Source: Mixia osmundae IAM 14324 (Eukaryota > Basidiomycota > Mixiomycetes > Mixiales > Mixiaceae). Taken from it: DNA of 64,000 nucleotides. The notes beneath the pieces are model-generated. The model worked only from the letters and a program-made list of their open reading frames with translations. It did not search any database and had not been told where the DNA came from. The stretch is from the NCBI RefSeq assembly GCF_000708205.1, contig NW_014575560.1:622501-686500 (forward strand). Direction: 5' to 3'. A program made the translations under genes and the position numbers. This document shows, piece by piece, positions 16,353 through 54,634 of this stretch. How positions within the stretch are numbered: the first letter of the stretch is position 1; every line of letters begins with the position of its first letter.

Positions 16353-17827
16353 ATGTCGACGCCTTGCTCAGGCGCATCAAAAGACCACATACAGATCTAC
16401 GCAGAGGCAGCAAATGCTTCGAAAACACTCTCAGTCTACCTTTGGTCGAACGAGCCGCTTTCGCTCGCATGCCGCGAGCTGCGATCGAATATGCTGGCGC
16501 TTGCGGCCACTCGGCATCAGGTATACTCCGTAAAATTACCAGGCGCTCTGGAAACATACGAGCCACTAGCTCTAAACGACAATGCAGGTCTCATCACAAT
16601 CAAGTATCGCCTTCAACCGGAGGACACATCTTCATCGCAGCGCTCCTTCGAGATCTGGCCGGCATCCCAGCTGAATGATGTCCGGCCGACTGCGCTTCAC
16701 TGTAAACAATGTCACACTGTACTTGCAGCTCTACGAGATTCCCCAGCATACCTGGCGTTGCCTTCAGAAGGCTGGAACGATCTCGTGGATACATGGCTTT
16801 GCCACAAAACTCGCACTGTCGAGAATCGCGTCGAGGCCGACTCAATACAGGCATTCAGTGGCCTCGACGGCACGACCCGCTTTACACCGACCAAAACATC
16901 CTTGCTGGTCTCATCTGCCTACCTACTCATCGATGGTAACGCGACGGAAAGTTGGCATGCACTCTCAAACCAGGTGAGAGTCAATGCACCTCTCACTCCC
17001 CGTTCAAGGACTCAAAGAAAGTTGGATGCTTGCTCCGCTCGCCCGCTCGATAGCCCTCTGCGGCCAGTCTGCGGCATGTGCAAAATCTTCTTGCTCTAGC
17101 TGATACACTTGTCCGAAAGCGACCCTCATTTGCGAACATCCTCGCTCGCCTTAGCATCCCGCGCAGGGAGGCTACTCGCGAACGAACAACCATCCCATAG
17201 GCCCATGATTGATCTGACGGTATGCTGACACAAGTCATGCAGTCGCAAATCGCGCAAGATGGCTCGCGCTGGTATCCTGTCGGCTGTTCAACGTGCGAAA
17301 GTCCGGTAGCCGAGGCGCGAGCCCAGGCGATGTCTGACAGACTGATACCTGCCCCTCAACGCAAAGCAGATGCTTGTCTCAAGTTCTGGAAGCACGCCGT
17401 CACCTTCGACGCGACAGCGACTGTGCAATTAGGAACGTACAGCTCACCGACATTCATAGTCAATCAATTGCTGCAGCTGTCTCGTGATACTGGCTCGTAC
17501 CGCTTCAGGTTGACGTGCAATGGCCACACGAAAGTGCTTCTATGGCTGTTCAACCCAGACATGTCTGTCATGACGAGTCAAGCCGTGATCGACGCAGGCT
17601 TTGCGAAGCTGCACAAGAGTGTCAAGATCTTCTTCGAAACAGCAGAGCGTGTTCAAGCTTCCGTCGCAAAGAGTTTCGAAGGATATCAGACCGAGAGCCT
17701 AGAGCTTGCAGATGCGACCTGTAGCTTGATGGTGGCAGAGCTCGAGGAGAAGCATAGAAGCCTGCCTGGGCATATACTTCCTGTTGTATTTGCCGGCCTG
17801 CGTGCCTCGTATCTGCATCGCACTTAG
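16353..17827 (+). CDS. HECT-like E3 ubiquitin ligase, UBE3D family
   Basis: Resembles the UBE3D / E2-binding family (HECT_2 domain), proteins that bind E2 enzymes and act as ubiquitin ligases. Exon 1 (16353-16973) has IYAEAANASKTLSVYLWSNE at the start and LPSEGWNDLVDTWLCHKTRT, the family's conserved W-x-CH signature. The last exon (17243-17827) has a Cys pair (VGCSTCESPV), SSPTFIVNQLLQLSRDTGSY and VLLWLFNPDM, typical of the C-terminal part. The join from 16973 to 17243 is in frame, but the implied intron of 269 bp is far longer than any other here, so a small missed exon is possible. The acceptor side has a good branch-like CTGAC before catgcag. The stop is 5 bp from the UTP7 stop on the other strand. 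Confidence 0.7.
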
Positions 17828-17832
17828 CTATG

Positions 17833-19674
17833 CTATAGCTTGCGGTTGCCGAAGCGGGAAAGGGCGCCTGTAGACACGACTGCCGATTGCTGAGTATTGA
17901 CACCTGCGAGACGGGCTTCGCGCTGCTTCGCAAGCTTGGCTCTGATCGCGAGCGTCTGCTCATCGACAACATTTTTCCGTCTGCGCAGGAGTCGCTTCAT
18001 CTCCTTGCTTCGCCCTTTGACTCGACGATTGACCTCTGGCTTTACCTGCGCCCTCTGCTCCTCATCAATGCTCTCGGCGTCCTCGTCTTCATCGTCGATG
18101 TCCGCTTTGCCGGAGACCTTCAGACGTTCTGTGCGCGGTAAGCGAGCAAACGGCGTCGCTCGAGCAGCTTTTCGTCTTTCATCGAAAGCAGCCGTGGCAG
18201 CTAACTCCTTGGGCTTCAGCAGCTTGCCGATGATGTCTTGGTCAACAGTGATCTGGTCAGCAGGTATCTTATCGAGCAAGCTCTGCACTTGTCGCTCCCT
18301 GCGAGCAGTCTTGCCTTGGAACGGATCAGCCTCGAGAGAGTCGTAATGAGGCTCGCCAGCGCCAGGCACAATGAGAGAAGTGAAGCCCTTTGCATGTCCC
18401 AGGCCGAGCACGTCGTCGAACGGACAAAATCGGAGTGATTGGGTGGCCGAGCCAGGCGTAGCATGAGTAAGATACAAGCCAGGCTTCTCAGCGCCGTCTC
18501 TCTTCAGTGACGAGGTAGCAGAACGATAGACGCCGAGCTGATTGCCCCAGCCTGCTGCGAGAAGGCCTCTCTGGCTCCAGGCGACTTGACCGGCCGGCCG
18601 GCGGGTTTGCCATTCGTTGAGGACAGACCACGTCCTGCAATCCCAGACCTTGAGCTTGCCGTCGAGGCCCGAAGTTGCCATATAAGGCGAGCCTGACACG
18701 CTAGGCATGACACTGATGGCCTTGACAGGACCCGCATGCGCCAGTAGAGTGACTTGAGCATGTGGCAGATTCGGCGTCCAGAGCGTTACGGTACCTACGG
18801 CGATGCAAGTCAGCCTCTGCCGCTGTAGCCACCGCCGGAAAGACATACCGTTTGCGTGACCGACATTGATGACCGCAGTGGCGGGGTCCTGTGTCATGGC
18901 ACCCGGCTGTCCGAGTCGGGTACGGGTCTCTGTGACGATCTGGCCGGTCGAAGTGTCCTGCCACTTGAGATAGCCGGCATTGCCGATGGTGGCGAGCAAG
19001 TAGTGGTACCGCAAGAACTCCATGTGAGTCACCTCCATATGGTTTCTGAGCTGATGTATCTCGAGGCCTTGCTGATCGTAGATGTAGACATACTGACGTT
19101 GTGCGACGGCCAAGAAGCCATCCGAGAGCCATTTTGCATCCCTGCAAGTCTCCTTGAGCTGTATCTCCGTCTCGAGCTTGTATGTGGCCGTGTCAAAGGT
19201 GGCGACGTGACCCTTGCGGCCACATAGCGCCAGCCGGCGTCCATCGTGCGTATATTCGCCCACGTAGGGACCTAGGTCGTCTAGTTGCAAGTCGAATGCT
19301 TTGCTAGCAGAAGACAAGCCGACGGAGTCCTGTATCTCGCGCTGCCTGACCCGCCAGGTCCGCTCGAGGTCATTCTCTGGCTCGAGGAGTCCAGAAGCAG
19401 ATCGGTCGAGCAAAAGATCGTCGTGCTCATGTGCGGCTGCCGCTGAGCGATAGTGCTGAGAGGACAGCTCCGAGAGATGACTGGCCAGCTTGCGATCTCG
19501 TATGCTGTGCTTGTAGTCTCGCTTCAGCTGTCGAGGCCGAGTCTTGAGGTACTTTGCAAGCTCTGCTGCCGGCGGCTCATAATCGCTCATCTCAGCTCGT
19601 GCAGCCGTCCCACCAGAGATGCGAGTCGCTCGCTCGGCATCCTCATCGATCTGACGCTCTTTGCCCTTGGACAT
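17833..19674 (-). CDS. UTP7: U3 snoRNP WD40 protein UTP7 (WDR46)
   Basis: Component of the small-subunit processome in the nucleolus, needed for early 18S rRNA maturation. Exons 19674-18849 and 18794-17833 give 595 aa. The region after residue 70 has GLLEPENDLERTWRVRQREI, a UTP7/WDR46 signature, then WD repeats (GPYVGEYTHDGRRLALCG, TSGLDGKLKVWDCRTW). The C-terminal BING4CT domain has LRFCPFDDVLGLGHAKGF and GAGEPHYDSLEADPFQ. The 54 bp intron (gtatgt...gtag) is a stop-free multiple of three, so retention would add 18 residues inside the beta-propeller; splicing gives the expected GHANGTVTLWTPN. Start taken at ATG 19674; an in-frame ATG at 19761 would add 29 residues. Confidence 0.93.
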   Translation of the reverse strand: MSKGKERQIDEDAERATRISGGTAARAEMSDYEPPAAELAKYLKTRPRQLKRDYKHSIRDRKLASHLSELSSQHYRSAAAAHEHDDLLLDRSASGLLEPENDLERTWRVRQREIQDSVGLSSASKAFDLQLDDLGPYVGEYTHDGRRLALCGRKGHVATFDTATYKLETEIQLKETCRDAKWLSDGFLAVAQRQYVYIYDQQGLEIHQLRNHMEVTHMEFLRYHYLLATIGNAGYLKWQDTSTGQIVTETRTRLGQPGAMTQDPATAVINVGHANGMSFRRWLQRQRLTCIAVGTVTLWTPNLPHAQVTLLAHAGPVKAISVMPSVSGSPYMATSGLDGKLKVWDCRTWSVLNEWQTRRPAGQVAWSQRGLLAAGWGNQLGVYRSATSSLKRDGAEKPGLYLTHATPGSATQSLRFCPFDDVLGLGHAKGFTSLIVPGAGEPHYDSLEADPFQGKTARRERQVQSLLDKIPADQITVDQDIIGKLLKPKELAATAAFDERRKAARATPFARLPRTERLKVSGKADIDDEDEDAESIDEEQRAQVKPEVNRRVKGRSKEMKRLLRRRKNVVDEQTLAIRAKLAKQREARLAGVNTQQSAVVSTGALSRFGNRKL

Positions 19675-20187: not shown

Positions 20188-23013
20188 ATGAGAGAGTCCA
20201 ATCACTCTCTCGTCCATCAGAACAGAGCCTGTGTCTGCGTCTCGTCTGCTCTCTACGACCGTCGAGGTAAGTGGCGCGTGATCAGTCAGCCAAGCCCTCG
20301 CTCAGACTGCTGTCTCGTGCCTTGCAGCGCTCGATGCACCCGTCCCGTCTCTGCCGCTCATATCCAGCTTGACCCATCTCTCGTACCTGACGACGACGAG
20401 CTCGAGAATACGAGAGATCATCTCTGTCGATGGCGGTCTCGAGCGACTCGTCAGGATCGTCGTGGCTTCCCTCGACGCTGCCGGTCGACTCGAACACTCT
20501 GCCGCGCTCGTCGTGGCCAGCTGTCCGCATGCCCCTGGCTTCGATCGACATGTCACGCCAGACCAGCGCGCTCAGAACAAGCAAAAGGCGATGCGTAAGG
20601 TCCTTCAGGACCGACTGCGCACGCTCAAGCCGACCTCGAAGCACACTGGCAGTGTCAGATCACCCTTCAGGCCCTTCTCCGCCTACTCGACCGAGCCACC
20701 CCTCCTGCCGAGCTTGACGCCCATTACGGGCAGCATCAGATCTCTACCCAATCCTCCCACCTGGTCGCCTGTCTCGGCTGCCGACGAGCCGAGAGCGCGC
20801 TGCCTGCTGTCGACCTACTCACTCGCCCTTCAAACGTTGATGAACATTGGTGTCAGAGGCAGCGAAGCGATCCGCACGCGTGTCGTCGAAGCAGGCATCC
20901 TCGAGCCCATCATCCGCATTCTCGAGGGCCACCTCGACATTCGCAAGCGTGCCGCAGACAGGCGATATGCTGCCCTCAAAGCTGCCAATCTACTACCATT
21001 CAGTCAGACCAGCTCCTGTAGTAGTCATGGCTCCAGTCGCAAGCTCACTCATCGGGCCCATCCTGCGGCCTCAGGCTCGTGCTCAACGATTCGCATCTCA
21101 CCCGATGAGAACGAGGAACTTGCTGCAGAGCCAGTCACTGCCTCTCGGACGATGGATTTACAAGAGACACCGCGGCCTCAACGTGCAGCTAGACATCTTG
21201 CCAGCATGACCCAGATAGCTTCGCCTCCCTTGATTCCCCTTGCATCGCCTCAGGCCCCTGTCTTGATGGTACCGACCGCTCGAATGGCGGCTCAAAATGC
21301 TTCACTAGGCATTTCTCCACCTCGTCGCACGCAGTCGCCTAGTGATACAGAGACCGAAGATCTGGATGGCTCAGCAACAGAGACCGATGCCGGCTTAGAC
21401 GTCATGCTGGTCGTCAGACCGTCATCGGCTGCCTCGTCTGCCTCATCATCTCGCGGTGTCGTTCCGGAGCGCGCGGAGATAGACTCCTCGCAGATCTCAA
21501 TCAAACCAGACCCATCCTCCGAGCACTCGCCAGACGACAATGCTGGGCCAGCTCCTGCAACTACCGATAATAATGATGGCGATGTGCAGATGGACGATGC
21601 CGTCGAGGCTATTGACCTCGATTCACAGCCCGCAGCCCGCTCTGTGCATGAAATCCTCGTCGAGCAAGAGACACCCAGGCAAGCCACTCGCCCGATACCA
21701 GAACAGTCGTCGCAGCAAGCCGAAAATCGATCGCGTTCGGCCATCACAGACGCCCAATCACAGATTTTGACCGATCTTCTAGCGGAGCCTCTTCGTGTGA
21801 CACCAGTCGATCCTCACTTCCGCGACCAGGACGTCTTTTTGTGCTTGCAGCTCTTGGCCTATCTATCAAAGTATCCTCATGTCCGCACGGTCCTTCACGA
21901 TCCTGATGATGTCGACTCGCACTACGAATCTGCTGCTCACTATGAGCGCTATCAGCAAGATATGCGCCAATATCGTCAACGCGATGCTCTCGCGCTTGCG
22001 GATCCTGACTTCATGCTCGGCGTCATTCCGACGGAGTCGCCGCGCGGCAAGCATCCGCGTGACCATGGCAAGCCGCGACTGCCCGCACCGATACAGCCAC
22101 GCTCAGATGCGAGAAACGTGTTCAATCTCGTCGAGAAGTTCACAGTGCGACCCGGGCCGAATGATAAATGGACACCCAGGCTACCTTCGACGGTGCAGTA
22201 CTGGGCAGGCGTCATTATGCGTAATGCCTGCAGGAAGGACGAGACGCGCGATGGCATCAGACAGTGCGCTAACACGCAATGCGGCAAGTGGGAAGCATAC
22301 GCGCGAGAGTTTGCAAAGTGTCGACGCTGTCGCAAAGCCAAGTACTGTTCAAAAGAATGTCAGTCCAAGGCTTGGCAAGGAGGTCATCGGTCAGTGCTTT
22401 TGAGTGGTATCTGCACGAATTTTACTCACGCGTGGCTACTAGCTACTGGTGCTCTGCGCGACATGAGGATCATGCCCAGCCGGCACATGGGGCTGCATCG
22501 AGCGGGGCAGAGGCCAGTACGACGACCACGGGCTCTAGCGAACGATCGCGCCATCGCCGTCGTGGTGCATCGGCCGTCGACGGACTGGCGGTGGCTCACA
22601 ATCGATTGACGCAAGGCTCAGAGGATGATGACGAATCCTCCGCTGTGGAATCAAGAACGGCCACTCCGCTCAATGGCTCGCCCGCGCGCTTCGAGCGTAC
22701 GCTCCGTCGAGCTGACGGTAGTCTTGCTCCTCAAGGTCCTCATCGCCCTCACCGAACGCATCGCGACTTGGCAACTGCGGGACAGATTGCTCGTCATCCG
22801 TTGGCGCACAATCTGCAGCCTGATCCAGCTGCGCTCGCGGACCCTACCAACGAAGGCGTCAACGTGGACGAGGTGGATGTCGCACGACAGATGATTGACG
22901 AAGGCAATGCTTTCGGGGTTCGTGTCGAAACTAGCGCCACGACTGTGGCCACCACAGACAGTCCGAGCGAGTTTGGTCAGTTCGAGGCAGCGACTGACGC
23001 CGAGGAAGAGTAG
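20188..23013 (+). CDS. MUB1: MYND zinc-finger protein MUB1/SamB
   Basis: Homologue of yeast Mub1 (with Ubr2 and Rad6 it forms an E3 that degrades Rpn4) and Aspergillus samB, a polarity regulator. Exons 20188-20266, 20328-22389 and 22443-23013 give 903 aa. The start is fixed by the conserved N-terminus MRESNHSLVHQNRACVCVSS, which splices into ALDAPVPSLPLISSLTHLSY. An armadillo-like region follows (LALQTLMNIGVRGSEAIRTR), then a long Ser/Pro-rich insert. The MYND finger has CANTQCGKWEAYAREFAKCR and CRKAKYCSKECQSKAWQGG; the second intron interrupts it and exon 3 restores the final HRYWCSARH zinc ligands. Ends 39 bp from the VPS71 stop (convergent). Confidence 0.9.
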
Positions 23014-23052
23014 TAGTGAGAGTGTTGTGCCAATGGCATCCTGTGCACCAGT

Positions 23053-23728
23053 CTAGCCTATCCGTCGCTCGCAGCGAGACTCGTCGTGCGTGGCTCGACA
23101 GGTCAGATCGCAATATTCGATCCCGCAGCGAATGCAGCTATAGGCAGGCTTGCTGCCACAGACCGAGCAGAGCCTCAAGGGCGGATACCGCGAAGGCTTC
23201 GCTTGAGCAGTACGATAGTTTGGCTGGTCGAGAGGCAAGTTCTGGGCGCTCAATTCAGCCAAAGGTGTACGTAGCGGCGCATCGACTGACCGCTTCTGAC
23301 ACGAGGGTGTTGTAATTCTTCGAGTACATGAGCAGCATCCTGACCGCAGTCGTCATCTTCTTGCGCCGCTTGCTGCCTGCACAGAACTTGAGCCGTCCGC
23401 AAGAGCTGCAGTACATGCCCCCGCGCTTACCCTCCTCGGCCGCAGCGCGCAGATGTCGTGAGCCCGTCGGTCGCTCTGCACCTTCGTCGCCGTCGAGCCC
23501 GTCGATATTGCCGCCTCTCGCTGCACTGGACGACACGCCAGGCTCGGTGTAGTTGCTCTTCTCAAGGTCGTCGAGGTGCCGCTTGTTGCTGATCGCACGC
23601 CTCTCTTCGGACAGCAATGATTGGCCTTGGTGGGCGGCCAGCACTGCAGCAGCTCGCGCAGCTACACGGACAGACCATCAGATCAGGTACACATCCTCGC
23701 TGTTGGACTCACGCTGCTTGCGGCCCAT
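23053..23728 (-). CDS. VPS71: HIT zinc-finger protein VPS71/ZNHIT1 (SWR1 complex)
   Basis: Subunit of the SWR1 chromatin remodeller that deposits H2A.Z. Exons 23728-23713 (16 nt), 23661-23291 and 23241-23053 give 191 aa. After MGRKQP the protein has a basic RRAISNKRHLDDLEKSNY helix matching ZNHIT1, a middle Cys-containing insert, then the zf-HIT domain (LCSVCGSKPAYSCIRCGIEY, CDLTCRATHDESRC) at the very C-terminus, as in the family. The 16 nt first exon is inferred: no suitable ATG exists in the second exon, and donor gtgagt with acceptor gtgtag lets it join in frame. The divergent methyltransferase gene starts 112 bp upstream. Confidence 0.85.
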
Positions 23729-23840: not shown

Positions 23841-24358
23841 ATGGCGCCGGATAGGCCGACGCGAGTGCATTACATGCCAGTGATGCTGCCATCGAGCGCA
23901 CAATCAGAAAAACTCAGCTTGCCTAACTATCCTCGAACACCTGCAATGCGCTCGGCTTATCGTCTCACCGCGTTCCAGTGGCGAGTCTATGACTTGCTGC
24001 ACAGTCAGATCATCCCTGCCGGTCGCGTGACATCATACGAAAGTCTGGCACGTAGGCTGAGCTCTTCACCGCGCGCAGTTGGCGGCGCCTTGAGGTCCGT
24101 ATGCTTGACGAGAGCTCACGTAGGATCTGTGTTCACGCTGGGATGTGCAGACGGAACCCTTTCGCGCCCGTGGTACCTTGTCATCGCGTCGTCAAAGCAA
24201 GCGGCCAGTTGGGCGGCTATATGGGCCAGTCGAGCAGCCGCAGCAGCAGCAGCCAGGGCGATCAGAAGCGACTGCAGAAGAAGATAGAGCTGCTTGCTGA
24301 AGAGGGTGTGCTCTTCGACGGAAAAGGCATGCTCAGGGATCCCAGCCAGCTCATATGA
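23841..24358 (+). CDS. MGT1: O6-alkylguanine-DNA alkyltransferase-like protein
   Basis: Small DNA-binding alkyltransferase domain protein. Exons 23841-24094 and 24151-24358 give 153 aa. FQWRVYDLLHSQIIPAGRVT and YESLARRLSSSPRAVGGAL form the winged-helix DNA-binding part, and the active-site loop reads VPCHRVV. The Cys is present, so this is a candidate active suicide methyltransferase rather than an alkyltransferase-like (ATL) protein, in which it is usually Trp. The overall length is close to ATL proteins because the N-terminal domain of classical MGMT is absent. The join at Arg (GGALRRNPFAPVVPCHR) restores the conserved order. A Ser-rich insert sits after GGYMGQ. Convergent with the MFS gene, 69 bp away. 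Confidence 0.85.
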
Positions 24359-24427: not shown

Positions 24428-27400
24428 TCAGCGAAGTCGGAAGGACCAGACGAGACCGAGGAAGCAGACGACAGCGATCAGGAAGAAACCGAATGCGTAA
24501 TTGGCTGGATAAGGGTAGTAGTCCGGCCCGCGAGAGATGGACCAACTCCAGATCTGGCCGCCGAGGGATTAGCCTTTTTGATTTCGTCAATGGGATGACA
24601 CACTGACGAAACCTCCCGACAGTGGACCGATGAAGCGTGCCAGAGATGCTGCGGACTGTGCGAGGCCGTTGCTCATCGGGATCAGGTGCGGCGGGGTGAG
24701 TGCGTTCGTCTGCGACTCTTTCGTCAGTACGCACAGTGCACGACCGCAGCAGGAAGCGTACTAGAATCATGACCGCAGAATATGCACATGTCTGAGCGCC
24801 GGGACCGCTTCAGCTCAGCATAGAGGGATCAGCGGACAGCTCACATTTGCGAGGAAGCGAATCGCGCTGAGCAAGATCATGCCGAACATGACGAGCCCAT
24901 TGCCTGATGGAATCAACGCACGCAACTCTGGGAAGAGCAGGTACGCCTACACCAGCTCGTCAGTCACGTCCCGGACAGAGAATGGTATGACGTACAGGTA
25001 TGTATAGGCACAGGCCCAATCTGAACATCGCAAGATGCGAGAGCTTGCCAAGCGGGGGCCCGACGTTCGGGTAGAACTTGAACTGAAAGATCATCTGTCC
25101 AATCGACAAATGAGCACGAGTACTTCTATCTTCAGATAGACCCACCTGAAAGAAGCACATCACGGCGACAAGCTCGGCGTAGTGTCCGGCAGTGAGCTCG
25201 AGTCCGCCCATGTCTTGCTTGGTCACAAGGAAGCTCATGAAGATCTGATCGCAAGTTGTACCATGCAACGCGAGGATAGCATACTGAGCGATCAATCCCA
25301 TTGGCAGATCTGCAAAGATCGACGGCTTCTCCGTACGCGAAGGCGGCTCAGGTGAGGCTTCTGTGTGGATCGCAGACTTGTTCTCCGGAATAGCCGCAAG
25401 GGGAGCCGTCGTGTCCGGCATGCCGTCAAAGTACTGCTCTCGCTCGCGTCCATAGGATGGACTGAGCATAGGCAGAGGCTGACTGAGACCGGTATTGGCA
25501 AAGATGGCCGGCACGCGCGAGGCAGTGCTGAAGCGTCGCGAAGTTTGACCGAAGCCAGTCGAAGGCGGAAAATTCTGGGAGAAGGATGGCCTCTCACGCG
25601 TAGCTGGTAAGGCCCGATCACGGGGTTCCGGCGAGCGCGTGCTATATCGACTGATGTTGCGAGAGGCCCGTCGAGAGGCAGGCACGCTGAGGTTCTGATC
25701 TTGCTGATACGACTGTATGCTGACGGCGCTCTCCGAAGCAAGCTGCTGCTCCGCTGCTCGGCCTCGCAAACTTGTCATGGACGGAGGTTGTGAACGGTCG
25801 TAAGCGGAGCTCATTCGATCACCTTCGCGGGACTCCTCGTCAGGCTGAGATCCTTCGTCGTCATAATCCGCATCATCCATCACGCTCTGTCCCTCTTCCC
25901 AGTCTGCCTGACTGTACTGGTCATCATCTCGCGTAGCTGCAGCAACCCAAAGATCCGAAATCTGAAACACTGCGTCTTCGTTTGCGAGCAGCAGACGTTG
26001 TACAAAGTTGAGATTCTGCGAGTCGTCATGCATGTCATCCTGGTCGGGTGCATAGCGCGTCGTTGTGGCAAAGCTGGAGGCTCTCGGTCGTCCAGTGTAC
26101 CGAGATCTGAATGATGCCTCATAGCCATACGCACTGCCCGGCATCTGACTTGTGGTCGTCTGCCTGGTCGCTGTGCGAGGTATCGCCAATGGGTTCTGCG
26201 TCGGCGCAGGCAGCAGTGCAGATGTGCGCTGCTCTGGCGAGAGATTGACAGTCTCTGATGGTGCTGATACGGGGCGATGACGACGAGAGAGACATCCGAG
26301 GAAACGATCGCGTATTCGCAGAGGTAGACTTTTTGCGCGTTCGAGATCCTTCTCCATAGCTAGCTTGATCCCTCCGGTACGCTCTCCGCCGTCGTAGCCA
26401 AGGAAAAGCGTGAGGATGCATCCGATTGCCGTGACGGACGAGCTGATGATGCAGGGGAGCAAGTAGGGATACTCCGCAAACAGGCTTGACTTGCTGAACA
26501 GCCACGGGTAGTTCTCTACGGGATGCTCGAGCAGGCCACCGATGATGGGACCAATGATACCGCCGATAGACCAGCAGAAGCCGAGCAAGGTGTAAGCGCG
26601 CCCTTCGTTGGTCGGATCCGTCACATCTCTGACTGCGCCACGAGCGACGCCGACCGCGCCATTGAAAAGTCCTTGACCCATACGAATGCAGATGGCCATC
26701 GCTAGATTGGTCGAGAGACCGAAGCAGAACAGTGTGACCGCATTGCCGAGCAGCGCAACGAAAAGCACGGCACGACGGCCGTACTTGTCAGCTGCGGAGG
26801 CCCAGAGCAAGGACACAAAGAACTGGGCCAGGAAGAAGCTACTTCCCTGCAGTTGCGCGCGTCAGATGGCTGTCATGGAGTGGAGACACACAAGACGTAC
26901 GACGATGCCCGCCCAGAGGCCAACTGCTGCCTCCCCTTGGACCTCACCAAAGTCGGCGATCATGAAGAAGATGAAGGGGGCCGTCGTCGAAGCGGAGAGA
27001 AACTCGCCAACCATGCAGATACAGAGTACGATGATGGGTATCGTCGGTAGGGGCGTCGAATAGGGCGGCACCGATCCAGTCGGTAATGCAGAGGGTATGA
27101 CGGGTGGCGCGATGGATGTATCTCTAGGTGGACCGCCTGCCTGCGAATCGTCGTAGGCATCCGTTACGGGCTGATACATCGATCGACGTGCAGGCGATGA
27201 CCACTGACTGCGGCGGCGCGACGAAGTACTCATGAGTCGCGTGCTCGAGCGCCCGGGCTGGGTGGGTAAGAGCTGGGAGATTCGTTTGCTCTGAGCGCGT
27301 GTGCGAGCGCTCAAACCTGCAGGATGGGTGTCCGTGGGTGTCTTCTGGGGGTCGTCAAAGTCATCATCTGCTTCATCGTCATCTGCAAACTCGCGCGTGT

Positions 27401-27728
27401 CGTCCGTCGCCATGGCCTCTTCCTCGCCTGATTCCGAGTCGTTCTCGATGGCAGACGTGTCTTGAGCCAGCAGACGTCGATCGGAGTATTGTGACGTTGA
27501 GCCGCGTCGAGGACCGAAGCCTGCCCGTGGTGAGGAGGAGTACATGCCGCCCAGGCCTCCTCGCGATCGACCAATGCCCGAGCCGGTACCTGCAGCGGGA
27601 ATGCTCTGTCGCTTGGCTTTGCCGAGAGGTGAGCTCGTGACAGACTCGAGCCGCGATGTTCTCGCAGGCCCAGGAGCAGGACTGTGGCGCGAATCGAGCC
27701 TGGACGAGCCGCTCGGTGGTGTCGACAT
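24428..27728 (-). CDS. Major facilitator superfamily transporter with very large central loop
   Basis: Twelve-helix secondary transporter of the DHA/ZIFL-like fungal group (YCR023C-like); substrate unknown. Seven exons (27728-26901, 26846-25146, 25094-24996, 24946-24845, 24791-24762, 24709-24608, 24553-24428) give 995 aa. Residues 1-225 are a Ser/Arg/Asp-rich cytosolic tail. Helix 1 starts PIIVLCICMVGEFLSAS, and the motif A loop is ASAADKYGRRAVLF. Helices 4-6 include GQGLFNGAVGVARGAVRD and GGIIGPIIGG. The loop between helices 6 and 7 is about 330 residues, Ser/Arg/Tyr-rich. Later helices include PTLPPHL-like TNALTPPHLIPMSNGLAQS. Intron 2 (25095-25145) is in frame and stop-free. Exon 5 is only 30 nt. 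Confidence 0.85.
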
Positions 27729-40093: not shown

Positions 40094-40097
40094 TCGT

Positions 40098-41351: not shown

Positions 41352-41508
41352 GGCTCCACAGCTTTGACTGCCGACCCCGTCTTTGACGTCACGAGGCGAT
41401 CGACGCGTCGCGCTTTCGCGTGTCTTCGCTGGCTTTGGCCGCGAGTTGGTCGGCGCGCCCGAGTCCGGTGAGTCAGGCATGGCGCCTCATGGCAGTCGCA
41501 AGGGCCAC
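41352..41508. promoter_or_regulatory. 157 bp divergent promoter, mannosyltransferase and DPB11
   Basis: Interval between the preferred starts at 41351 and 41509. Both reading frames remain open through it, and their next ATGs upstream overlap at 41478-41481, so it could also be coding on both strands. Confidence 0.4.
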
Positions 41509-44500: not shown

Positions 44501-44584
44501 GCCTCATCTGGCTCTCGCGCGCGGCTACAAGGCGTACAAGAGGGAGTCAGTGAACATTCTCAAAGACAGACGAGGCAGCGATAG
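41509..44584 (+). CDS. DPB11: Multi-BRCT replication/checkpoint protein DPB11/Rad4/TopBP1
   Basis: Scaffold that links CDK-phosphorylated Sld3/Sld2 at origins and activates the ATR/Mec1 checkpoint. Exons 41509-43175 and 43222-44584 (46 bp intron) give 1009 aa. At least four BRCT domains can be seen: about residues 85-190 (LHGVKISATGIQDDARTKL ... LSIDWIDDLHQCW), 200-320 (LKISITGFPKEPESTRNDY ... TCRAVWSTWVEDSLAAGY), 490-580 (IFAGYRFQHCGLAGISCTRF ... VVSQYWVERCLYIGS), and 700-790 (LHGCVITTSQRFEHQA ... FIVHPKWLEDSLAE). A further BRCT-like stretch lies between the third and fourth. The N-terminal 60 residues are basic and the C-terminus disordered with KR-rich patches. An ATG at 41479 would add 10 residues. 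Confidence 0.88.
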
Positions 44585-46396: not shown

Positions 46397-48635
46397 TGTG
46401 GGCGAGGTCTCCTGAAAAGTTTGCAGTCTGCAAGCGCGCGACTCTTGACTCGCTGTCTTGTTTGAGGCTGAGCCTGTTCATGCATGATGAGTCCGAGCTC
46501 GCGAATGTTACGGCTGTAGCGACCTACTCTACCCTACTGATTGATTGTCAAGATGAGATAGGAAGAGATCGATCTGATCCGATATTCCGCAGTAAACGCC
46601 ACAACGCCAAGCCCGGCTTGAGCCGCGGGAGACAGTGCTGGCTCACCGGCTGCAGCAGGCTACATGTCGATCAACGTGGACCTACTGTGTCTCAAGGGTT
46701 GCTTTGTGCATTTGGTAACAATGATGTTGATCTCTGACTCACGCTACAGCCCGTCTGGTGTCGTTCTCGACGGCCTGCTTGGTCCGTTTCGTCAGTACAC
46801 GATGTCAGCATGCACATAGTTCAGTGCACGCAGTATTGGTCAGAAGCCCGGAATCCCAGAAGATGGCAGGCCTTTTGGGTGCCCGCCATCTCATTTGCTA
46901 CCCGCCATCTTTTTCTCACTCATTCGCGGACTGTTGTGCAACTTTCCCACCACTGGCAAATTTATGCACACCAAGTACCAAGGCGACAAATGTACTGCCA
47001 GACCGACACTTATCAATGACCCTGGCCCGCCTCTGAGTCTGCCATGTGTCGCAGCATGGGGATCACGCGTCTCTCGTGAGATGATCGGTTTGTCAACAAG
47101 AAGATCAGTACATCGCGGCCCGCGAGCGAGTCGCTCTGACACTGCCACCTTGAGGTTATGATCGCAACATGACCGGTGACGGGTGAGTACTCAATGCGTG
47201 AGCGGGTCGTGGGCAAGACCAGCAAATGTACTGCCAGACCGACACTTATCAATGACCCTGGCCCGCCTCTGAGTCTGCCATGTGTCGCAGCATGGGGATC
47301 ACGCGTCTCTCGTGAGATGATCGGTTTGTCAACAAGAAGATCAGTACATCGCGGCCCGCGAGCGAGTCGCTCTGACACTGCCACCTTGAGGTTATGATCG
47401 CAACATGACCGGTGACGGGTGAGTACTCAATGCGTGAGCGGGTCGTAGGCAAGAGCAGCACACCTTCCATCTACAAGTCCTCATTCCCACAACGCAATGC
47501 ATGATCATCATCAGTCTATCGTGTAAACTTCATGCCTCGTGGAAAGATCACGCCGAGAGTGCAGAAGGTAATATGCATATCATTTCGCGGCTTGACGTAC
47601 CCTGCGCGCGGCACACCTACCGTTACCCTGACGGCTCCTAACGCAGCTCTTGATGCGCCTGAGCCAGCTTTCCAGCGACAGCATGCTCATTTGCATGATC
47701 TTTGGGGGCAGGCACCTGCATCGTTGGTTTTGGAACCGCGTATTACGAGCTACAGGACGGCAACGAGCTCTGCTCTGGACTGCCGAGACTCGTAGTCGTG
47801 CGGATGAGGCATGCCTTGAGCTCGCGAGCTGGCTGAGACTCAGCTTGCTGTGAGCCTCTGGCGGCACGCGCGTTCTGCGAGACGGACTTGAAACACACTT
47901 GGCTAGGTTGCAGCCTCGAAACGCCGTGCCCCGGCAATGAAGCATCTCGAATTGTTTATCGTTGTACTCGATGAATCTACAGACGGGATCAGCTCGCTTG
48001 CCACTGGGAGGCTGTCCGGCTGCTGCCAATCCGAGCCCGAGAATGGCGGCCTGCGATCATGCCACTGTAGGGAGGCCATTGATGTATGCAGTAGCTCCTC
48101 TCGATCAGTGATTTCGAGGTGCAGCCGTCTACCAGCTGTTGCTGCTGCAATTCGACGAGGTGTTCGTTGGTGACTGATTGCTTGACGGTGGACTCGACGG
48201 CGCGCACCTTTCTGTCGAGAGATCAGATGCTCTCATCAATATCATCGACTTAGCACAGCCATAAGTTAGTCTTCCGCCTGGAGGGCCTTGCTCGCATCAC
48301 TGTGTAACGACAATGGCCTGCTGGCATGCAATGTACCAAGACGACTTTGCTCGAGATCTTGTGGCATACACTCGTCCGCTCTGGTCTCGTTGCTGCCAGG
48401 ACCAGCACGCATGGCAAACTCTGCGTCATCGTCATGATCATCATACGGAAAGAATCAGCTTCTCTCCATCGAATTTGCATTTATACCATCGATCGCGTTA
48501 CGCCCAGCACGCGACGATATCAACTTTGGAAAGGCATCAATGTGCCTTTGATAGTCCTTCAGACTCTCCACAGAAAGGCGCAGCGAGCGTAGCAGGATGC
48601 GATTGCCAGTGTGAGCAGACGAGACGACGAAGGCG
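46397..48635. other. 2.2 kb gene-poor region upstream of FTR1 and GH5 glucanase
   Basis: Longest stretch without a convincing gene in this otherwise dense window. It lies between two divergent genes and so holds both promoters. Contents: two direct copies of a 10 bp motif cccgccatct near 46888-46918, the 236 bp tandem duplication at 46988-47459, and scattered frames of 70-150 codons with no recognisable domain. The largest, 47580-48029 on the minus strand, is Arg/Ser-rich and probably chance. No tRNA-like A/B boxes were found by eye. A small spliced gene or non-coding RNA at 47.5-48.3 kb cannot be excluded. Confidence 0.55.
46988..47459. repeat. Direct tandem duplication, two 236 bp units
   Basis: Units 46988-47223 and 47224-47459 are identical except for two substitutions in the last 12 bases. 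Each unit contains TTATCA (GATA-type site on the minus strand) at about 47010 and 47246. The near identity indicates a recent duplication. It lies in the shared upstream region of FTR1 and the glucanase gene. Confidence 0.95.
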
Positions 48636-50423
48636 ATGCCGCACTGGAGATTAGCAGCAGCTCTACTGCTTTCGAGCTTTGCAGCCGCGCAAGATGCCGG
48701 ACTGTCCGGCCCCGTGGACGATACAGACCCGGGCGGTCTGCAGCTCATCGTAGCAAATGCGACTGCCACCCCAGACGATATGGCCGCTGTGACGGTGACA
48801 ATGACGAGCACGCACTGGGTCGTGGCTGCGACAAGTCATCAACAAATGGCATTCGCAACTCCACACGCCAAGGCTACCGCCAAGCAAAACAAGAAAGCGC
48901 ATTCGAAATCAAGTGCGTCTCCACAAGCGAGCACAACGAGGATTGCACGGGGCAAAGCGAAAGCGTCTGTGCCTGCCAATACAACACAGAATGCAGTCTC
49001 GCTCAGCAAGCTCATCAACGTCACAGACGAATGGGATTGGACCACATTCAAAGCCAACGGCGTCAACATAGGCAATTGGCAAGTTCTCGAAAGCTGGATG
49101 GTGCGTCGTCTGTACCGTCTACGGGTTGCATGCTGACACGACAGCCAGAACCCGACATGGTTTGCTTCCATTGCCGCCGGTACAGGCGCAGTAGACGAAT
49201 GGACGCTGGCGGAGTATCGCGGGCACAAGATAATGGGACCCATTCTCACACAGCACTGGGATACCTGGATAACAGAGAAAGACGTCCAAACGCTGTCCGA
49301 TCTCAATGTCAACATGATGCGCATACCGGTCGGCTTCTGGGCCTGGGGCAACGTGACGGGCGTCATGGCAGGCGAGCCTTACTACATCGGCGACCGCTTG
49401 TCGAGGATACAGAGACTCATCGAATGGGGAGCGCTGCATAACATCTATAGCGTCATCGACATGCACGGAATGCCAGGATCACAATCTGGCAACGATCATA
49501 CCGGGCATGTCGGCCCGAAACTGTTCTTTCAGCCTGCGAACCAACAGCGCTCGCGTAGAGTCATCCAGGTCGTCTCTGACTGGATCGACGCATTGCCCAA
49601 GACGACGCGGAGCTGGGTTGCCGGTCTCGAAGTCGTCAATGAACCGCAGCTGTACGCGCACCGCATCTGAAGCAGGTGATTCGAGCTGAGCTTGGATTCG
49701 ACAGGTCTGCGACAGGCTCATGGTACGACAAGACATACGAGCCCGTCTTAAAGAGCTTCTACCACGACTCATACAACATCATCCAGAATGGCAACACGCC
49801 TAAGAAGACGACCGTCATCCATGATGCCTTCTACCCGTACGTACCATCAGCCTCCACGCAGACGCACAAGTCTCAAGCGTCCAGCAGACCTGGCACAGGC
49901 GTGTGGGATGATTTCATGCTCAACGTTCCAAAGAACAACCTCGTTCTTAGCAGTCATCCATGTCGGGGCATCTCGCACAATCTTGCGTCAAGCTGACTTG
50001 CATTGCAGACTACCACTGGGACACGTACAGCGATGCAGAGGCTGCCATCAACACCTACAAGTCGGCCGACTGGTTTAACTACCCCCGACCGCTCTGGCTC
50101 AACGAATGGTCACTCAGCCTGCCAGATGATTGCGTCAATTCGTACACCGAATCGAGCGATTGGTACCAGCGCTTCTGGCAGCACCAAGGTAAGCGTTGGG
50201 CCAGGCATTTGCGGCAGCAAGCTGACGTGCTTACTGCAGTCGGCGAGTGGTATCAGTTTGCAGGGTGCGTCTGCTATGCGCCCTCGCATGCATGTGCTGA
50301 ACAGGTTGCCCTTGCAGACATGCATTCTGGTCGATCAAGACGATCGACAATCCGCCGTGGTCGTTGGAGATCTTGGCCAATGCGATTCCGACGGCGATAG
50401 AGACGGTAACGACGCCCGAATGA
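48636..50423 (+). CDS. Secreted exo-beta-1,3-glucanase, glycoside hydrolase family 5
   Basis: Cell-wall glucan hydrolase of the EXG1/GH5_9 type. Seven exons (48636-49100, 49149-49651, 49705-49836, 49888-49952, 50009-50188, 50240-50264, 50318-50423) give 491 aa. A signal peptide (MPHWRLAAALLLSSFAAAQ) is followed by ~110 Ala/Thr/Lys-rich residues. The catalytic barrel has NGVNIGNWQVLESWMNPTWF, MMRIPVGFW, VIDMHGMPGSQSG, LEVVNEPQL (acid/base Glu) and LWLNEWSL (nucleophile Glu), ending FAGHAFWSIKTIDNPPWSLE. Exon 6 is 25 nt. Intron 3 (49837-49887) is in frame and stop-free. Several introns were placed by restoring barrel motifs; the loop around intron 2 (NEPQLSATGSWYDKTYEP) is shorter than in yeast Exg1. 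Confidence 0.88.
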
Positions 50424-50494
50424 GTGACGAGAGACGCTAGCGCAATGCCCGTAGATGTGTTTGTTCAGTCGCAGTCGCAGAATGTATGTATTGT

Positions 50495-51265
50495 TTAGCT
50501 TGGCCGGATACGTTTGCGGTCGCGATTGTCATCTGTGAGCGTGTCTGTCCTTGCATGTTTGCGGAGCTTTCTCGTCTTTGAATCTCGGTACGTCTTTGAC
50601 CATGTTGCCGGGTCAAAACCAGGCAAGACGCCAGCTTTGAGCGTGAAGGCCTCTCTGATCGCGCTTTCGTCAAAGTCGTGAATAGGCCCAGGTTCTTTGT
50701 TGGGGTCGAAGAGGAGGTCCTGTAGCAAGTGAGTCTGACTGTCCTTTGCTGGCTTGACGTACGCTGTCGAACAGACTGACTCAGACGTTGCGGTTGGAGT
50801 CAGCAATGCAAGACCGACCTGGTTCGTCCATCGCGTAGGCATACAGACTCTTGTCCATCTTGTTCTTTCTCCCGTCTGGCTGCGATGGCGAAGAAGGCTG
50901 ACCGAGCGTCGCTGCCTTCTTGCTGGGTCCTACGCTCCAAGCGGGCATGCCCAGGGTGATATCGACCGGTTTAAACTTGTCGGTCTGGTCAGCCGGCTCA
51001 GTATCGTTGACGCTGTCTTGGGCTGCCTTTTTGTACGGCCGCACAAAGTGGTCATAGAGCGGCAACAGGTCGAACACGCCGAGAAGATCCTGTCGACCGC
51101 TGAATGCGGGCGAGATCTGATCTGCTTTGAGCGTAAGCTGTCGCACGAGCTAGAGATGGCCAAAGTGGTACTTGAGACGGGGCACGGGTAGGCTGCCGTC
51201 GAGTCCAGCTCGGCTGCCGGACGAGACGCTGGAGCATCAGGCTTGATCTCCTCGGCCGGCGACAT
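50495..51265 (-). CDS. MED19: Mediator complex subunit 19 (Rox3)
   Basis: Head-module-proximal subunit of the RNA polymerase II Mediator. Exons 51265-51179, 51137-50819 and 50763-50495 give 224 aa. The core has RQDLLGVFDLLPLYDHFVRP, which matches the MED19/Rox3 signature, then the KMDKSLYAYAMDEPAYVKPA segment formed across intron 2, and LLQDLLFDPNKEPGPIHDFD followed by FTLKAGVLPGFDPATW. The C-terminal tail is basic (RKLRKHARTD ... RDRKRIRPS), as in other MED19 proteins. The first exon and its 41 bp intron are tentative; the frame shift between exon 1 and exon 2 requires an intron there. GH5 ends 71 bp away and ZNF830 starts 132 bp upstream. Confidence 0.75.
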
Positions 51266-51397: not shown

Positions 51398-52215
51398 ATG
51401 AGCGATTTGCGCTCCCTGATGAAGAGCGCTCGCCGGCTCGAGCACCCGCAGGCAAAGTATGATCGTACCGGCAAGCTGACTTGCTCCTTGTGCGCCTTGC
51501 CCGTCAAAGTAAGGCCTTTCGTGCCTTGTAGCCAGACAAGTAGCTCATCCTAAAGCAGCACGAGAGCCTCTGGGCAGCCCATACCACTTCAAAACTTCAT
51601 CGGGGCAATGCTCAACGAGCACAGGAAGCTTTGCAGAAGCGTGCGCTCGAAGAAGAGGATGACGACGGAGGAGTGGAGTCAGACGAGGAGCCTGCGCCCA
51701 AGCGAGCACGGAAAGCATCCGAACCTGCACCTGAAGTCCAAGGCTTGCCAGCTGGGTTCTTCGACGACGCATCAGATGCTCAAGCTGCTGCTGCTCAGGA
51801 CCTACATCCTGCCGCTTCAACTCGAGCAGAAGAACAGGAGGCACCGGTGGAGGAGGAAGAGGAAGAAGATCCCGAGTGGGCAGCATTCAAGCAGACCATC
51901 GCAGCCCCGGAAGATGAACTAGCAGGCTATTCGAACGCGGCGATGACCGTTCGCGGAGAGCCAGTCATGTTCGACGCGCCTGCTGCTCGAGCCGACGAGA
52001 CGCAAGATGGAGGCGACGACGATGATGATGGCGACGGGAAGCCAGAGGAGAGTGAAGCAGAGCGGAAGGATCGAGAAGAACGCGAGGAGCTCATGGAACG
52101 CATCGAGAACGAAGAGCGCGAACAGCTAGAGGCAGATGAGCGCGTTGAGGCGCTCAAGAAGCGGATGGCTCTCCTCAAGTCTGCCCGTCTAGCGAAAGCC
52201 AAGGTGACAACCTGA
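51398..52215 (+). CDS. Zinc-finger protein ZNF830/CCDC16 homologue
   Basis: Nuclear C2H2-type protein of the CCDC16 family, which associates with spliceosomes. Exons 51398-51508 and 51559-52215 (50 bp intron) give 255 aa. The N-terminal MSDLRSLMKSARR precedes a U1-like zinc finger: CSLC, then after the splice HESLWAAHTTSKLHR. The middle is acidic (EEEDDDGG, EEEEEDPEWAAFKQTI). GLPAGFFDD is a conserved family patch. The C-terminal half is a Glu/Arg coiled coil ending in a basic ARLAKAK tail. Splicing is required to bring the Cys pair and the His pair together, which supports the intron. Ends 8 bp from the COG6 stop. Confidence 0.85.
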
Positions 52216-52223
52216 ATGCTAGA

Positions 52224-54634
52224 CTACACGCCCAATACATTGGCAGCGTCCTCTGGACTTCTCGTCAGCAGAGTCGTCGTATCCTCGAACCCGCTGTCTG
52301 CTTCTCGGACGGCGAGCCAGATTTGTTTGTAAGCCTCGGCAAGCTTGACGAGCGCCTGCCGGTGGATCTGTGACGCCAATAGGTTCGACGAGAGTAGCGC
52401 AAGCCGGTTCGAGCTCAGCGTATCGAGCTGGGTCAGGAATGCGTCGAATACTTTGGCGGCCGTGATGAGCGCGCTGGCAGGACAGCGCTTCGCCAGTGAG
52501 GCCTATCAGATCCCATAAGCTGCCTTTGCTTACCATGGATGCACAGCCTACCTCCGAGCTGTCCACGACTGCTTTGTGTGGCACAGTGAGACCACTGTCC
52601 TTGAGAAGACCGGTGAACTGCAAGGCTGGTCAAGCGAGCCGCGCATAACAATCATCTGCTGACTTACGTGCTCGTCAATCAAGATGTCGACAAACTTGTC
52701 TTGATCTTTTGTGAGGGAAGCGATGCGCTCCGACGTGAAACTGAACGGCTCGAGGCTCTCCTGCTCGTCATCTCGTAAGCCTTGTCTTGACGAAAAGTCT
52801 GTCGATAACCACCGACTTTGACAAGACCGATGCAGTTGAGACCGAAGATAGCACGATCCCATGGCTGTGGTCGCATCTCGCCCATCTCCTTGCACATCAT
52901 CAATGCAGGATCGAGCGCAGCGTCCAGTACGTCTCTGAACTCGTTCTCGCGATCTTGCTCGTCGACGAGTGAAGAGTCGTACACTTGCATGATCTCTCTG
53001 AGCGTGACGAGTGTATCCCTGAGCGACAGAGGCGGCGAGAGATCGATGCTAGGTGGCTGTATGAAGCGCAACAGACTGCGACCCTGCGTGTCGACAGTCT
53101 CGAAGAAAGACTCGTATGCCTCCGTATTGATGCTGACAAGGCGCATTAGTATCGAGCCGAAGACAGCGACTGATAGGACGTACTCAGTCAGGGTTTTGCT
53201 CAGCAGTGCGTCTGCTCCTATGGTGCGATCCATAGTAATCTTATAGAAAGTGATGAGGTTGGCGATCTGATAGGCAGGTATGCTGCCCTTTTGTGAGTCC
53301 ACCGTCTGCTTGATCCGTAACCGCAGCGGACGACCGCAGCCTTCCAGACATCGATCGAGCAAATTGCGTATCCTCACTTCATCAAGACCGCGTTCATCGT
53401 CCGGTTTGAGCTCGCCTCGCGCTTGGCCAGTCTTGCGGCCGTCCGACTTTGTATCAAACAGCGAGTCGAGAAATTCTCGCTCGCCTGCCGTGGCCTGATG
53501 GACCCATGCAAGCATGTCGCCCACGTAACGTATGGGATCGTGCGCATGCATCTCTATCGGCCGGGGCAACCCGTTCAGCCCTCCTCTGGTCAGAGCGGCC
53601 AGGAACGCGTTGAGCACCGTCGTCGAGCGAGATTGGCCGAGAAGGTCCGTTATCTCGCTGCCAGGCGTCATGAACACCAAGGCATGATAGATGAAGAAGC
53701 TGAGCTAACCTGAGCAGATCCGGTCGCGCTTTCAACCGTCGGATTGCATCTTTCATCCTCGGCGAGACTTCGAGCACATCGGAAGCATAGCCGCGCACTT
53801 GGAAAGCGCACCATTTGTAGATCTTCTGATAGGCCGTCTCGAGGTACTGGGAAGACGAAGCCATAATGTCAAGACCTGCTTGGCTGGACGTGCCCGACTC
53901 GCCGCCCATGAGGACGCGACAGTCTTGACGGATCCTCTCGACCTTGTCCATGACGGCAAAGAGCGAAGGACCGACGTTAACTTCGCGAGAGTTGAGCAGC
54001 CTGAGCTCGTCGTCATCGAGGGTGAAGCGCGCCGTGAAGACATCCGCTAGCAGTTGTCGCTGTGTTGTGATGGTCCTGCTTGTGGCTGTCAGCAGATACT
54101 CAGAGCTGGGCCACGGAGCCTGCCTTTGCTGACGCAGACCATCCGCATGCTCGAGCAAGTGGCGCGTGCTGTCATGGGCAGATTTCAATCGTTGCTCGAC
54201 GTCACTGCAGGCAGAATGCATCTCGTCGACGTGACTTTGCAACGATGAGAGATCCTGCCAAGGCGGGGTCATATTCAGCGCGAAGTTTGTCTGAGCGAAG
54301 AGCTATCGCTGACGCTGTTGACCTGAGCAAACGCTTCCAAGAACTTCTTGCTCTCGAGCTGCATCCGTCGCTCGACCTCTCGCCGCAAGCTGAGCTGTCC
54401 CGTCCGAGTCTGAGCAGGCGTATCGTTCGTAGCGTTGCTTGCAGAGAGTGTACTCGGGGCAAGCTGACATTGTGCGAGGGTGTCGAGAGCAGCAATAGCA
54501 GCTGAATCCTCATAGGCTGTCGAGAGTATCTTGCTCACTTTGAGCGCGATGGCGTTTCTTGATAGGCCGCCGCTGGACCCGACGATCGAAACATCGCCGC
54601 CGGCCGTCGTGGGACTGGCTGGCGAGCGCATCAT
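52224..54634 (-). CDS. COG6: Conserved oligomeric Golgi complex subunit 6
   Basis: Lobe B subunit of the COG tether for retrograde traffic within the Golgi. Exons 54634-54314, 54254-53710 (probably interrupted), 53657-52817, 52760-52668, 52617-52552 and 52502-52224 give about 700 aa. Signatures: MDKVERIRQDCRVLMGGES, LDIMASSSQYLETAYQKIYK, FLAALTRGGLNGLPRPIEMH and AHDPIRYVGDMLAWVHQATA. The C-terminus, built from three small exons, has LEPFSFTSERIASL and SALITAAKVFDAFLTQLDTL. Within exon 2 an in-frame stretch ending at 54076 looks like an intron, with either a GC donor at 54123 (48 bp) or a GT donor giving 39 bp; removal yields GLRQQRTITTQRQLLADVF. The N-terminal start is at a double Met. Confidence 0.85.

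What the first reader, a model, noticed from the sequence alone, without database searches (positions are those of the whole stretch)
16353..54634. Twenty consecutive genes alternate strand without exception
From the UBE3D-like gene to COG6 the order is + - + - through 20 genes over 38 kb. With random orientation, 19 alternations in a row have probability 2^-19. Every gene thus has a divergent partner at its 5' end and a convergent partner at its 3' end. This would force shared promoters and overlapping 3' ends, a possible genome-wide rule for gene regulation or antisense control in this compact genome.
Basis: seen in the sequence. Interest (0 to 1): 0.75.

Follow-up and report, generated by a model that had tools for sequence, protein, structure and literature searches.

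The report
Twenty strand-alternating genes in Mixia
A fungus with a very tightly packed genome has twenty neighbouring genes that strictly alternate DNA strands; the pattern is real, but it looks like the expected longest run of a mild packing-driven preference rather than a special regulatory rule.

Summary
In Mixia osmundae IAM 14324 (contig C4), 20 consecutive protein genes from a HECT_2/UBE3D-like gene (16353+) to COG6 (ends 54634-) alternate strand 19 times; breaks are 14472+ on the left and an LSM gene at 54834- on the right. I found no tRNA, Rfam RNA or further gene inside. 19 of 20 genes have family, PDB or deposited-protein support, two of them only below Pfam cut-offs.

The 2^-19 odds do not hold, because alternation is not a fair coin here. 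Outside the run, 78/110 or 74/110 junctions of the surrounding 200 kb alternate (two gene-finder settings), against 0.49-0.50 when genes are re-oriented at random. At 0.63-0.71, a run of 20 or more among 6,700 genes has a 32-94% chance. Alternation is memoryless outside the run and concentrated at spacers under 800 bp. A neutral inversion model with breaks proportional to spacer length, fed Mixia spacer lengths, gives 0.66-0.74 alternation and a mean longest run of 20-27.

So this is a packing bias of a compact genome, known in kind, not a rule. Against a genome-wide bias: 60 kb from three other contigs gave only 15/27 or 15/31. I analysed 2.4% of the genome, and no related fungal genome was held.

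The parts
16353..17827 (+). run gene 1: UBE3D-like (HECT_2); two ORFs of one gene
   Evidence: HECT_2 profile 24-193 in 16353-17075 and 202-358 in 17222-17824
17833..19674 (-). run gene 2: BING4/UTP7-type WD40 protein
   Evidence: BING4CT 8.7e-34
20188..23013 (+). run gene 3: MYND protein (MUB1-like), one 903-aa gene
   Evidence: deposited protein P0003 L969DRAFT_47271, 100%; zf-MYND
23053..23728 (-). run gene 4: zf-HIT protein (SWC6/VPS71-like, name recalled)
   Evidence: zf-HIT 4e-6 in exon 23056-23253; upstream exons predicted; stop codon at 23053-23055
23841..24358 (+). run gene 5: methylguanine-methyltransferase-like
   Evidence: DNA_binding_1 6.1e-24
24428..27728 (-). run gene 6: MFS transporter
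   Evidence: MFS_1 4.9e-21 across the exon junction
28019..29357 (+). run gene 7: PIG-M-like GPI mannosyltransferase
   Evidence: Mannosyl_trans in 28019-28687 and 28786-29034; stop at 29357 chosen by eye from the frame
29433..29936 (-). run gene 8: CHCH-domain protein
   Evidence: CHCH 1e-5, 25.9 bits against cut-off 27.2
30043..30674 (+). run gene 9: 192-aa protein seen only in Mixia
   Evidence: deposited P0001 L969DRAFT_93950, identical to the prediction
30714..34125 (-). run gene 10: Zw10-like
   Evidence: Zw10_middle 1.4e-4 and ZW10_C 1.8e-3, both below cut-off; N-terminal exon no match
34509..35741 (+). run gene 11: SUMO E1 subunit 1 (AOS1)-like; last exon overlaps gene 12 by 25 bp
   Evidence: ThiF 8.3e-18; PDB SUMO-activating enzyme subunit 1 for both parts; frame runs to stop at 35741
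35717..37886 (-). run gene 12: 704-aa protein seen only in Mixia
   Evidence: deposited P0002 L969DRAFT_47591, identical to the prediction
38045..40093 (+). run gene 13: COQ8-type ABC1 kinase
   Evidence: ABC1 8.8e-64; first exon matches COQ8A/B
40098..41351 (-). run gene 14: Anp1-family mannosyltransferase
   Evidence: Anp1 6.4e-39
41479..44584 (+). run gene 15: multi-BRCT protein
   Evidence: BRCT in 41755-43173 and 43619-44581
44713..46481 (-). run gene 16: FTR1 iron permease
   Evidence: FTR1 2.1e-63
48636..50423 (+). run gene 17: GH5 exo-1,3-beta-glucanase-like
   Evidence: PDB glucan 1,3-beta-glucosidases, best 3.2e-22; Cellulase 8.3e-5, below cut-off
50495..51265 (-). run gene 18: Mediator subunit 19-like
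   Evidence: PDB 5n9j_C Med19, E 8.1e-4; no Pfam match
51398..52215 (+). run gene 19: predicted protein with a weak C2H2 finger
   Evidence: coding score 41; zf-C2H2_jaz 0.0049, below cut-off; no PDB match
52224..54634 (-). run gene 20: COG6
   Evidence: COG6_C 1e-51; 54275-54634 taken as its N-terminal exon by eye, no Pfam match
54834..55232 (-). LSM-domain gene (LSM8-like, name recalled) that ends the run
   Evidence: LSM 6.7e-17
14472..16340 (+). gene left of the run, same strand as gene 1
   Evidence: coding score 57-59; main exon has no Pfam family above cut-off

Best explanation
The run is the upper tail of a pairwise strand-alternation bias (0.63-0.68 per junction outside the run, where sampled) in a very compact fungal genome. 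Convergent junctions carry no promoter and shrink to tens of bp (shown). Short junctions are hit less often by rearrangement breakpoints and so persist (reported for yeasts, inferred here). On a linear chromosome convergent and divergent junctions must be equal in number to within one, so keeping convergent pairs also raises divergent ones, which fit one shared promoter spacer of 100-300 bp (spacing shown, promoter sharing inferred). Junctions behave independently, so a run of about 20 somewhere in the genome is expected. No long-range organiser is needed.
For: Flanks of the run on C4: 78/110 and 74/110 junctions alternate at cut-off 10 (0.644-0.736 over 8 settings, p 0.005 to 2e-7). Re-orienting the same gene units at random and re-predicting gives 0.486 and 0.499 (24 repeats each, maxima 0.569 and 0.591) against 0.685 and 0.731 for the real block, run included, so merging of tandem genes does not create the bias. 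Reversed sequence gives 0 and 3 genes at that cut-off, against 131 and 131. No memory outside the run: P(alt after alt) 53/76 or 48/72, P(alt after same) 24/32 or 25/36. With the run left out, alternation is 88/116 or 79/114 at spacers under 800 bp and 5/21 or 10/27 above (p 8e-6 and 0.003), and convergent spacers are shortest (medians 70 or 95 bp, against 193 or 262 divergent and 285 or 347 tandem). The inversion model with breaks proportional to spacer length gives 0.66-0.71 alternation, 0.8-3.4 runs of 20 or more and a mean longest run of 20.4-25.2 with spacers of the whole sample, and 0.68-0.74, 1.3-5.8 and 21.6-27.1 with run spacers left out; with equal spacers 0.50, none and 13. At p=0.63-0.71 the chance of a run of 20 or more in 6,700 genes is 32-94%.
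Against: Three remote 20 kb samples (C1, C3, C7) alternate at only 15/27 or 15/31 at cut-off 10 (0.45-0.52 at cut-offs 5 and 15). The difference from the C4 flanks is not significant (p 0.17 and 0.06), but a regional effect is not excluded; if the genome average were 0.50 to 0.55 the run would be exceptional (0.4-3%). Even at 0.71 a run of 20 within this one 131-gene block has only a 5% chance. Divergent spacers are not significantly shorter than tandem ones (p 0.14-0.15). The model takes spacer lengths from the same sample, predicts slightly more than the observed 0.63-0.68 in its higher versions, and does not separate cause from effect. Long spacers may hide missed genes.
Confidence: 0.64

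Rival explanations
1. Selection for compactness or insulation: tandem pairs are selected against because read-through from an upstream gene disturbs the downstream promoter, while alternating pairs need only one promoter spacer per two genes. Same pattern, but adaptive.
For: 2 of 41 and 3 of 35 tandem spacers are under 50 bp, against 14 of 44 and 20 of 47 convergent ones (looser and stricter setting). A convergent plus a divergent junction need about 264 bp (70.5 + 193) where two tandem junctions need about 506 bp (stricter-setting medians).
Against: The neutral length-dependent model already gives the observed level without selection on orientation. Short tandem spacers do occur (11 of 47 and 12 of 57 at 100 bp or less).
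Confidence: 0.2
2. A genome-wide regulatory rule: alternation is kept because neighbours are co-regulated from shared promoters and by antisense from overlapping 3' ends, possibly through RNA interference.
For: Median divergent spacer in the run is 158 bp, convergent 39 bp with one 25-bp coding overlap. The genome holds an Argonaute-type Piwi domain (C5) and an ORF with two RNase III domains (Dicer-like, C2).
Against: 32/110 or 36/110 flanking junctions do not alternate. No serial dependence. The run mixes unrelated functions. [quoted passage not shown] No expression data here.
Confidence: 0.08
3. Local chance: the genome is near 0.50 and this stretch of contig C4 simply drew a long run in a scan of many windows.
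For: Remote samples are near 0.5 (15/27, 15/31), and the window was picked for its run.
Against: The flanks of the run, not picked for alternation, are at 0.64-0.74 with p 0.005 to 2e-7. At p=0.5 a run of 20 or more arises in 0.4% of 6,700-gene genomes.
Confidence: 0.1

Closest known systems
Tail-to-tail excess in Cryptococcus neoformans var. grubii (PMC3990503; section 11 read, passages on gene counts)
   Same: Gene-dense basidiomycete genome (genes occupy 85%). 2,189 tail-to-tail pairs with annotated 3' UTRs over 6,962 genes; by my arithmetic at least 31% convergent and, by topology, about 63% alternating. 72.7% of these pairs overlap in transcription.
   Different: No alternation rate or run lengths in the section and passages I saw; overlap was measured by RNA there and is only inferred from spacing in Mixia.
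Opposite-strand neighbours in the brown alga Ectocarpus (PMC7784034; passages)
   Same: Strong tendency of adjacent genes to lie on opposite strands; 61.7% of genes flanking TSS-adjacent intergenic regions are in divergent pairs; divergent spacers under about 600 bp share one nucleosome-depleted region.
   Different: Called unusual for a genome of its size there; the genome is much larger and unrelated (recalled); chromatin measured there, not here.
Minimal regulatory spaces and length-dependent rearrangement in yeasts (PMC3128071; passages and section 12)
   Same: Convergent spacers shortest and without a hard lower limit; divergent and unidirectional ones bounded by promoters; a break probability proportional to spacer length fits old convergent pairs.
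   Different: In the parts I saw, alternation runs are not treated, and its fit was less good for promoter-containing spacers; my simulation is an extension of its rule.

Membership tests
Strand-alternation bias of compact genomes | Adjacent genes on opposite strands more often than 50% | tested here: met
   Outside the run, C4 flanks and remote samples together: 93/137 (0.679, CI 0.594-0.756) or 89/141 (0.631, CI 0.546-0.711); re-orientation null 0.49-0.50. Remote samples alone 15/27 and 15/31, inconclusive
Strand-alternation bias of compact genomes | Convergent spacers shortest, no promoter-sized lower limit | tested here: met
   Median 70.5 or 95 bp; shorter than tandem, p 2e-6 and 4e-5; 14/44 and 20/47 under 50 bp; holds with the run left out
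Strand-alternation bias of compact genomes | Divergent pairs share one promoter or nucleosome-depleted region | not testable with these tools
   Spacing fits (run median 158 bp); no TSS or nucleosome data for these loci held
Strand-alternation bias of compact genomes | Overlapping 3' transcripts at convergent pairs | tested here: inconclusive
   Ten stop-to-stop spacers: nine of 4-128 bp and one 25-bp coding overlap make overlap likely; no transcripts seen
A strict alternation rule or long-range organiser | Serial dependence: alternation more likely after alternation | tested here: not met
   53/76 against 24/32, and 48/72 against 25/36, run left out
A strict alternation rule or long-range organiser | Near-complete alternation outside the run | tested here: not met
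   0.64-0.74 in C4 flanks, 15/27 or 15/31 in remote samples

The most novel reading that the evidence does not exclude
In Mixia (and perhaps other compact basidiomycetes) alternating stretches form functional chains in which each gene shares its promoter spacer with one neighbour and its 3' end with the other, so that expression and dsRNA/RNAi effects pass along the chain and select for alternation regionally (stronger on this part of C4 than on the sampled parts of C1, C3 and C7).
Probability: 0.08. Interest if true: 0.65.

Novelty: new member of a known kind. Interest (0 to 1): 0.27.

Why it matters
It offers a simple quantitative account of why compact genomes alternate strands: spacer lengths alone, through length-dependent breakage and the topological tie between convergent and divergent pairs, give about the observed rate and the length of the longest run. 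That is testable across fungi with gene tables alone. If it fails in Mixia, selection on neighbour orientation becomes the interesting alternative.

Tried and rejected
First gene finder over-predicted introns and fragments (366-415 calls in the block) and was dropped; a stricter donor, branch-point and intron model replaced it. Considered and not upheld: artefact by merging tandem genes (genes already merged in the first prediction would stay merged there); artefact by false genes (reversed sequence); missed RNA genes; split or merged genes inside the run, for the genes where I tested it. RdRP search gave nothing, but its control genomes were empty too, so it says nothing. Literature: searches returned no paper; the listings (titles and starts of abstracts) named no alternation runs in Mixia. 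Passages seen but not used: PMC7789003, PMC7181583, PMC5515960. Related fungal genomes were not held (one search says the genome has no relatives here). L001-L008 were not used in any count.
Full report
What it is. The window is C4:622501-686500 of a 13.5 Mb, 19-contig genome. Three of its proteins match deposited proteins of Mixia osmundae IAM 14324 at 100%, so the organism is that basidiomycete. Published counts are 13.39 Mb and 6,726 coding sequences (PMC3376729, section 3.1 read). My gene finder gives 0.496 genes per kb at cut-off 10, which scales to about 6,700 genes.

Checking the run. I fetched 100 kb on either side, wrote an HMM gene finder with introns and trained it on the resulting 264 kb. 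In the stricter setting, with all predictions kept, 20 genes from 16353 to COG6 alternate + -. Weak points were tested one by one. The two ORFs at 16353 and 17222 are the two halves of one HECT_2 gene. 20188-23013 is one 903-aa deposited protein. 23255- has its zf-HIT exon further down at 23056-23253. 28019+ has a further PIG-M exon, and I chose its stop at 29357 by eye from the frame. 34509+ has its last exon at 35508-35741. The first exon of 38045+ is COQ8-like, so it belongs with the ABC1 exon. MFS_1 spans the exon junction of 24428-. Of the 20 genes, 19 have family, PDB or deposited-protein support, for CHCH and Zw10 only below Pfam cut-offs; 51398+ rests on coding score and a sub-threshold zinc finger. 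No tRNA (bacterial settings) and no Rfam family is in the window. Seven gaps were examined for open frames; apart from the exons just named the best coding score was 2.4. The gene finder alone is not unanimous: the stricter setting gives 20, 20, 18 and 18 genes at no cut-off, 0, 5 and 10; the looser one breaks the stretch into pieces of at most 14, 7, 11 and 8, partly because it splits HECT_2 and COQ8. At cut-offs 15 and 25 both settings give a 20-gene run, but a different one (8178- to 56621+) that skips several small genes.

Is it more than chance? Against a fair coin, yes: 0.4% of simulated 6,700-gene genomes have a run of 20 or more. But the coin is not fair. Outside the run, the C4 flanks alternate at 78/110 or 74/110 (cut-off 10; 0.644-0.736 over eight settings). 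Random re-orientation of the same gene units followed by re-prediction gives 0.486 (sd 0.040) and 0.499 (sd 0.050), 24 repeats each, so the gene finder does not create the excess. Reversed sequence yields 0 and 3 genes at the cut-off against 131 and 131. Adding the remote samples, the rate outside the run is 93/137 (0.679) or 89/141 (0.631). At such rates a run of 20 or more somewhere in the genome is likely: 32% at 0.63, 48% at 0.65, 75% at 0.68. Within this one block of 131 genes it would still be a 1-5% event at 0.65-0.71, which matters little because the window was picked for it.

Result against a genome-wide bias. The three remote 20 kb samples (C1, C3, C7) alone give 15/27 or 15/31 at cut-off 10. 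They do not differ significantly from the C4 flanks (p 0.17 and 0.06), and their intervals run from 0.30 to 0.75.

Anatomy. Inside the run the ten convergent stop-to-stop spacers, after correcting three gene ends, are 5, 39, 69, 75, 39, -25, 4, 128, 71 and 8 bp; the nine divergent ATG-to-ATG spacers are 513, 112, 290, 106, 383, 158, 127, 2154 and 132 bp. The six convergent spacers of 39 bp or more are 49-52% GC, the nine divergent ones 55-67%. Over all sampled junctions, run included, convergent spacers are shortest (medians 70.5 or 95 bp), then divergent (193 or 290), then tandem (253 or 331); the divergent-tandem difference is not significant. With the run left out the order is the same (70 or 95, 193 or 262, 285 or 347), and alternation is 88/116 or 79/114 at spacers under 800 bp and 5/21 or 10/27 above (p 8e-6 and 0.003). 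Outside the run the junctions look independent: P(alt after alt) is 53/76 or 48/72, and after a same-strand junction 24/32 or 25/36. The run is therefore a streak and not evidence of an organiser.

Mechanism. In yeasts, promoter-free convergent spacers are shortest, and a break probability proportional to length explains which convergent neighbours survive, less well for the other classes (PMC3128071, passages and section 12 read). I put that rule into an inversion simulation of 6,700 genes. With equal spacers it stays at 0.50 and a mean longest run of 13. With Mixia spacer means or medians it settles at 0.66-0.71, 0.8-3.4 runs of 20 or more and a mean longest run of 20.4-25.2; with run spacers left out, 0.68-0.74, 1.3-5.8 and 21.6-27.1. 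The upper end is above the observed 0.63-0.68 outside the run but within or near its confidence limits. Shown: spacer classes, bias on C4, independence. Inferred: that breakage scales with length in Mixia, and that divergent partners share promoters. Selection against short tandem pairs would look alike and is my main rival.

Regulation. The genome encodes a Piwi domain (Argonaute-type) and a 1273-aa open frame with two RNase III domains, so RNA interference from overlapping 3' ends is possible; nothing here shows it. In Cryptococcus 72.7% of 2,189 tail-to-tail pairs overlap in transcription (PMC3990503, section 11 read). In Ectocarpus short divergent spacers share a nucleosome-depleted region (PMC7784034, passages). 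The Mixia nucleosome paper reports depletion upstream of TSSs and just downstream of ORF ends (sections read); a word search of its main text found neither 'strand' nor 'bidirectional'.

Known or new. Excess of opposite-strand neighbours is known in kind: stated for Ectocarpus, and implied for C. neoformans by 2,189 tail-to-tail pairs over 6,962 genes, at least 31% convergent and so about 63% alternating (my arithmetic; numbers). The Mixia case is a further, compact example.

Noticed in passing
35717-35741: The coding sequences of the convergent AOS1-like gene (+) and the 704-aa gene (-) overlap by 25 bp at their 3' ends.
   Followed up: yes
46482-48635: A 2.15 kb divergent spacer between FTR1 iron permease and a GH5 exoglucanase is the one long gap of the run; no coding signal, tRNA or Rfam match found in it.
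   Followed up: partly
30043-30674 and 35717-37886: Two run genes had no relative beyond Mixia itself in the protein searches (1 hit each, their own deposited copies; in 49 only the 7999 best candidates were scored).
   Followed up: partly
G000:C5:846130-846914 and G000:C2:1078843-1079700: A Piwi domain and an open frame with two RNase III domains: the core of RNA interference appears present.
   Followed up: partly
L031-L032 (C3:600001-620000) and L033-L034 (C7:300001-320000): Both remote samples contain stretches of four or more same-strand genes at cut-off 10, unlike the C4 run.
   Followed up: no
16353-54634, spacers: Six convergent spacers are 49-52% GC, nine divergent (promoter) spacers 55-67% GC.
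   Followed up: no
8178-56621: If only well-scoring genes are kept (cut-off 15 or 25), a second, partly different 20-gene alternating run appears that skips several small genes.
   Followed up: partly
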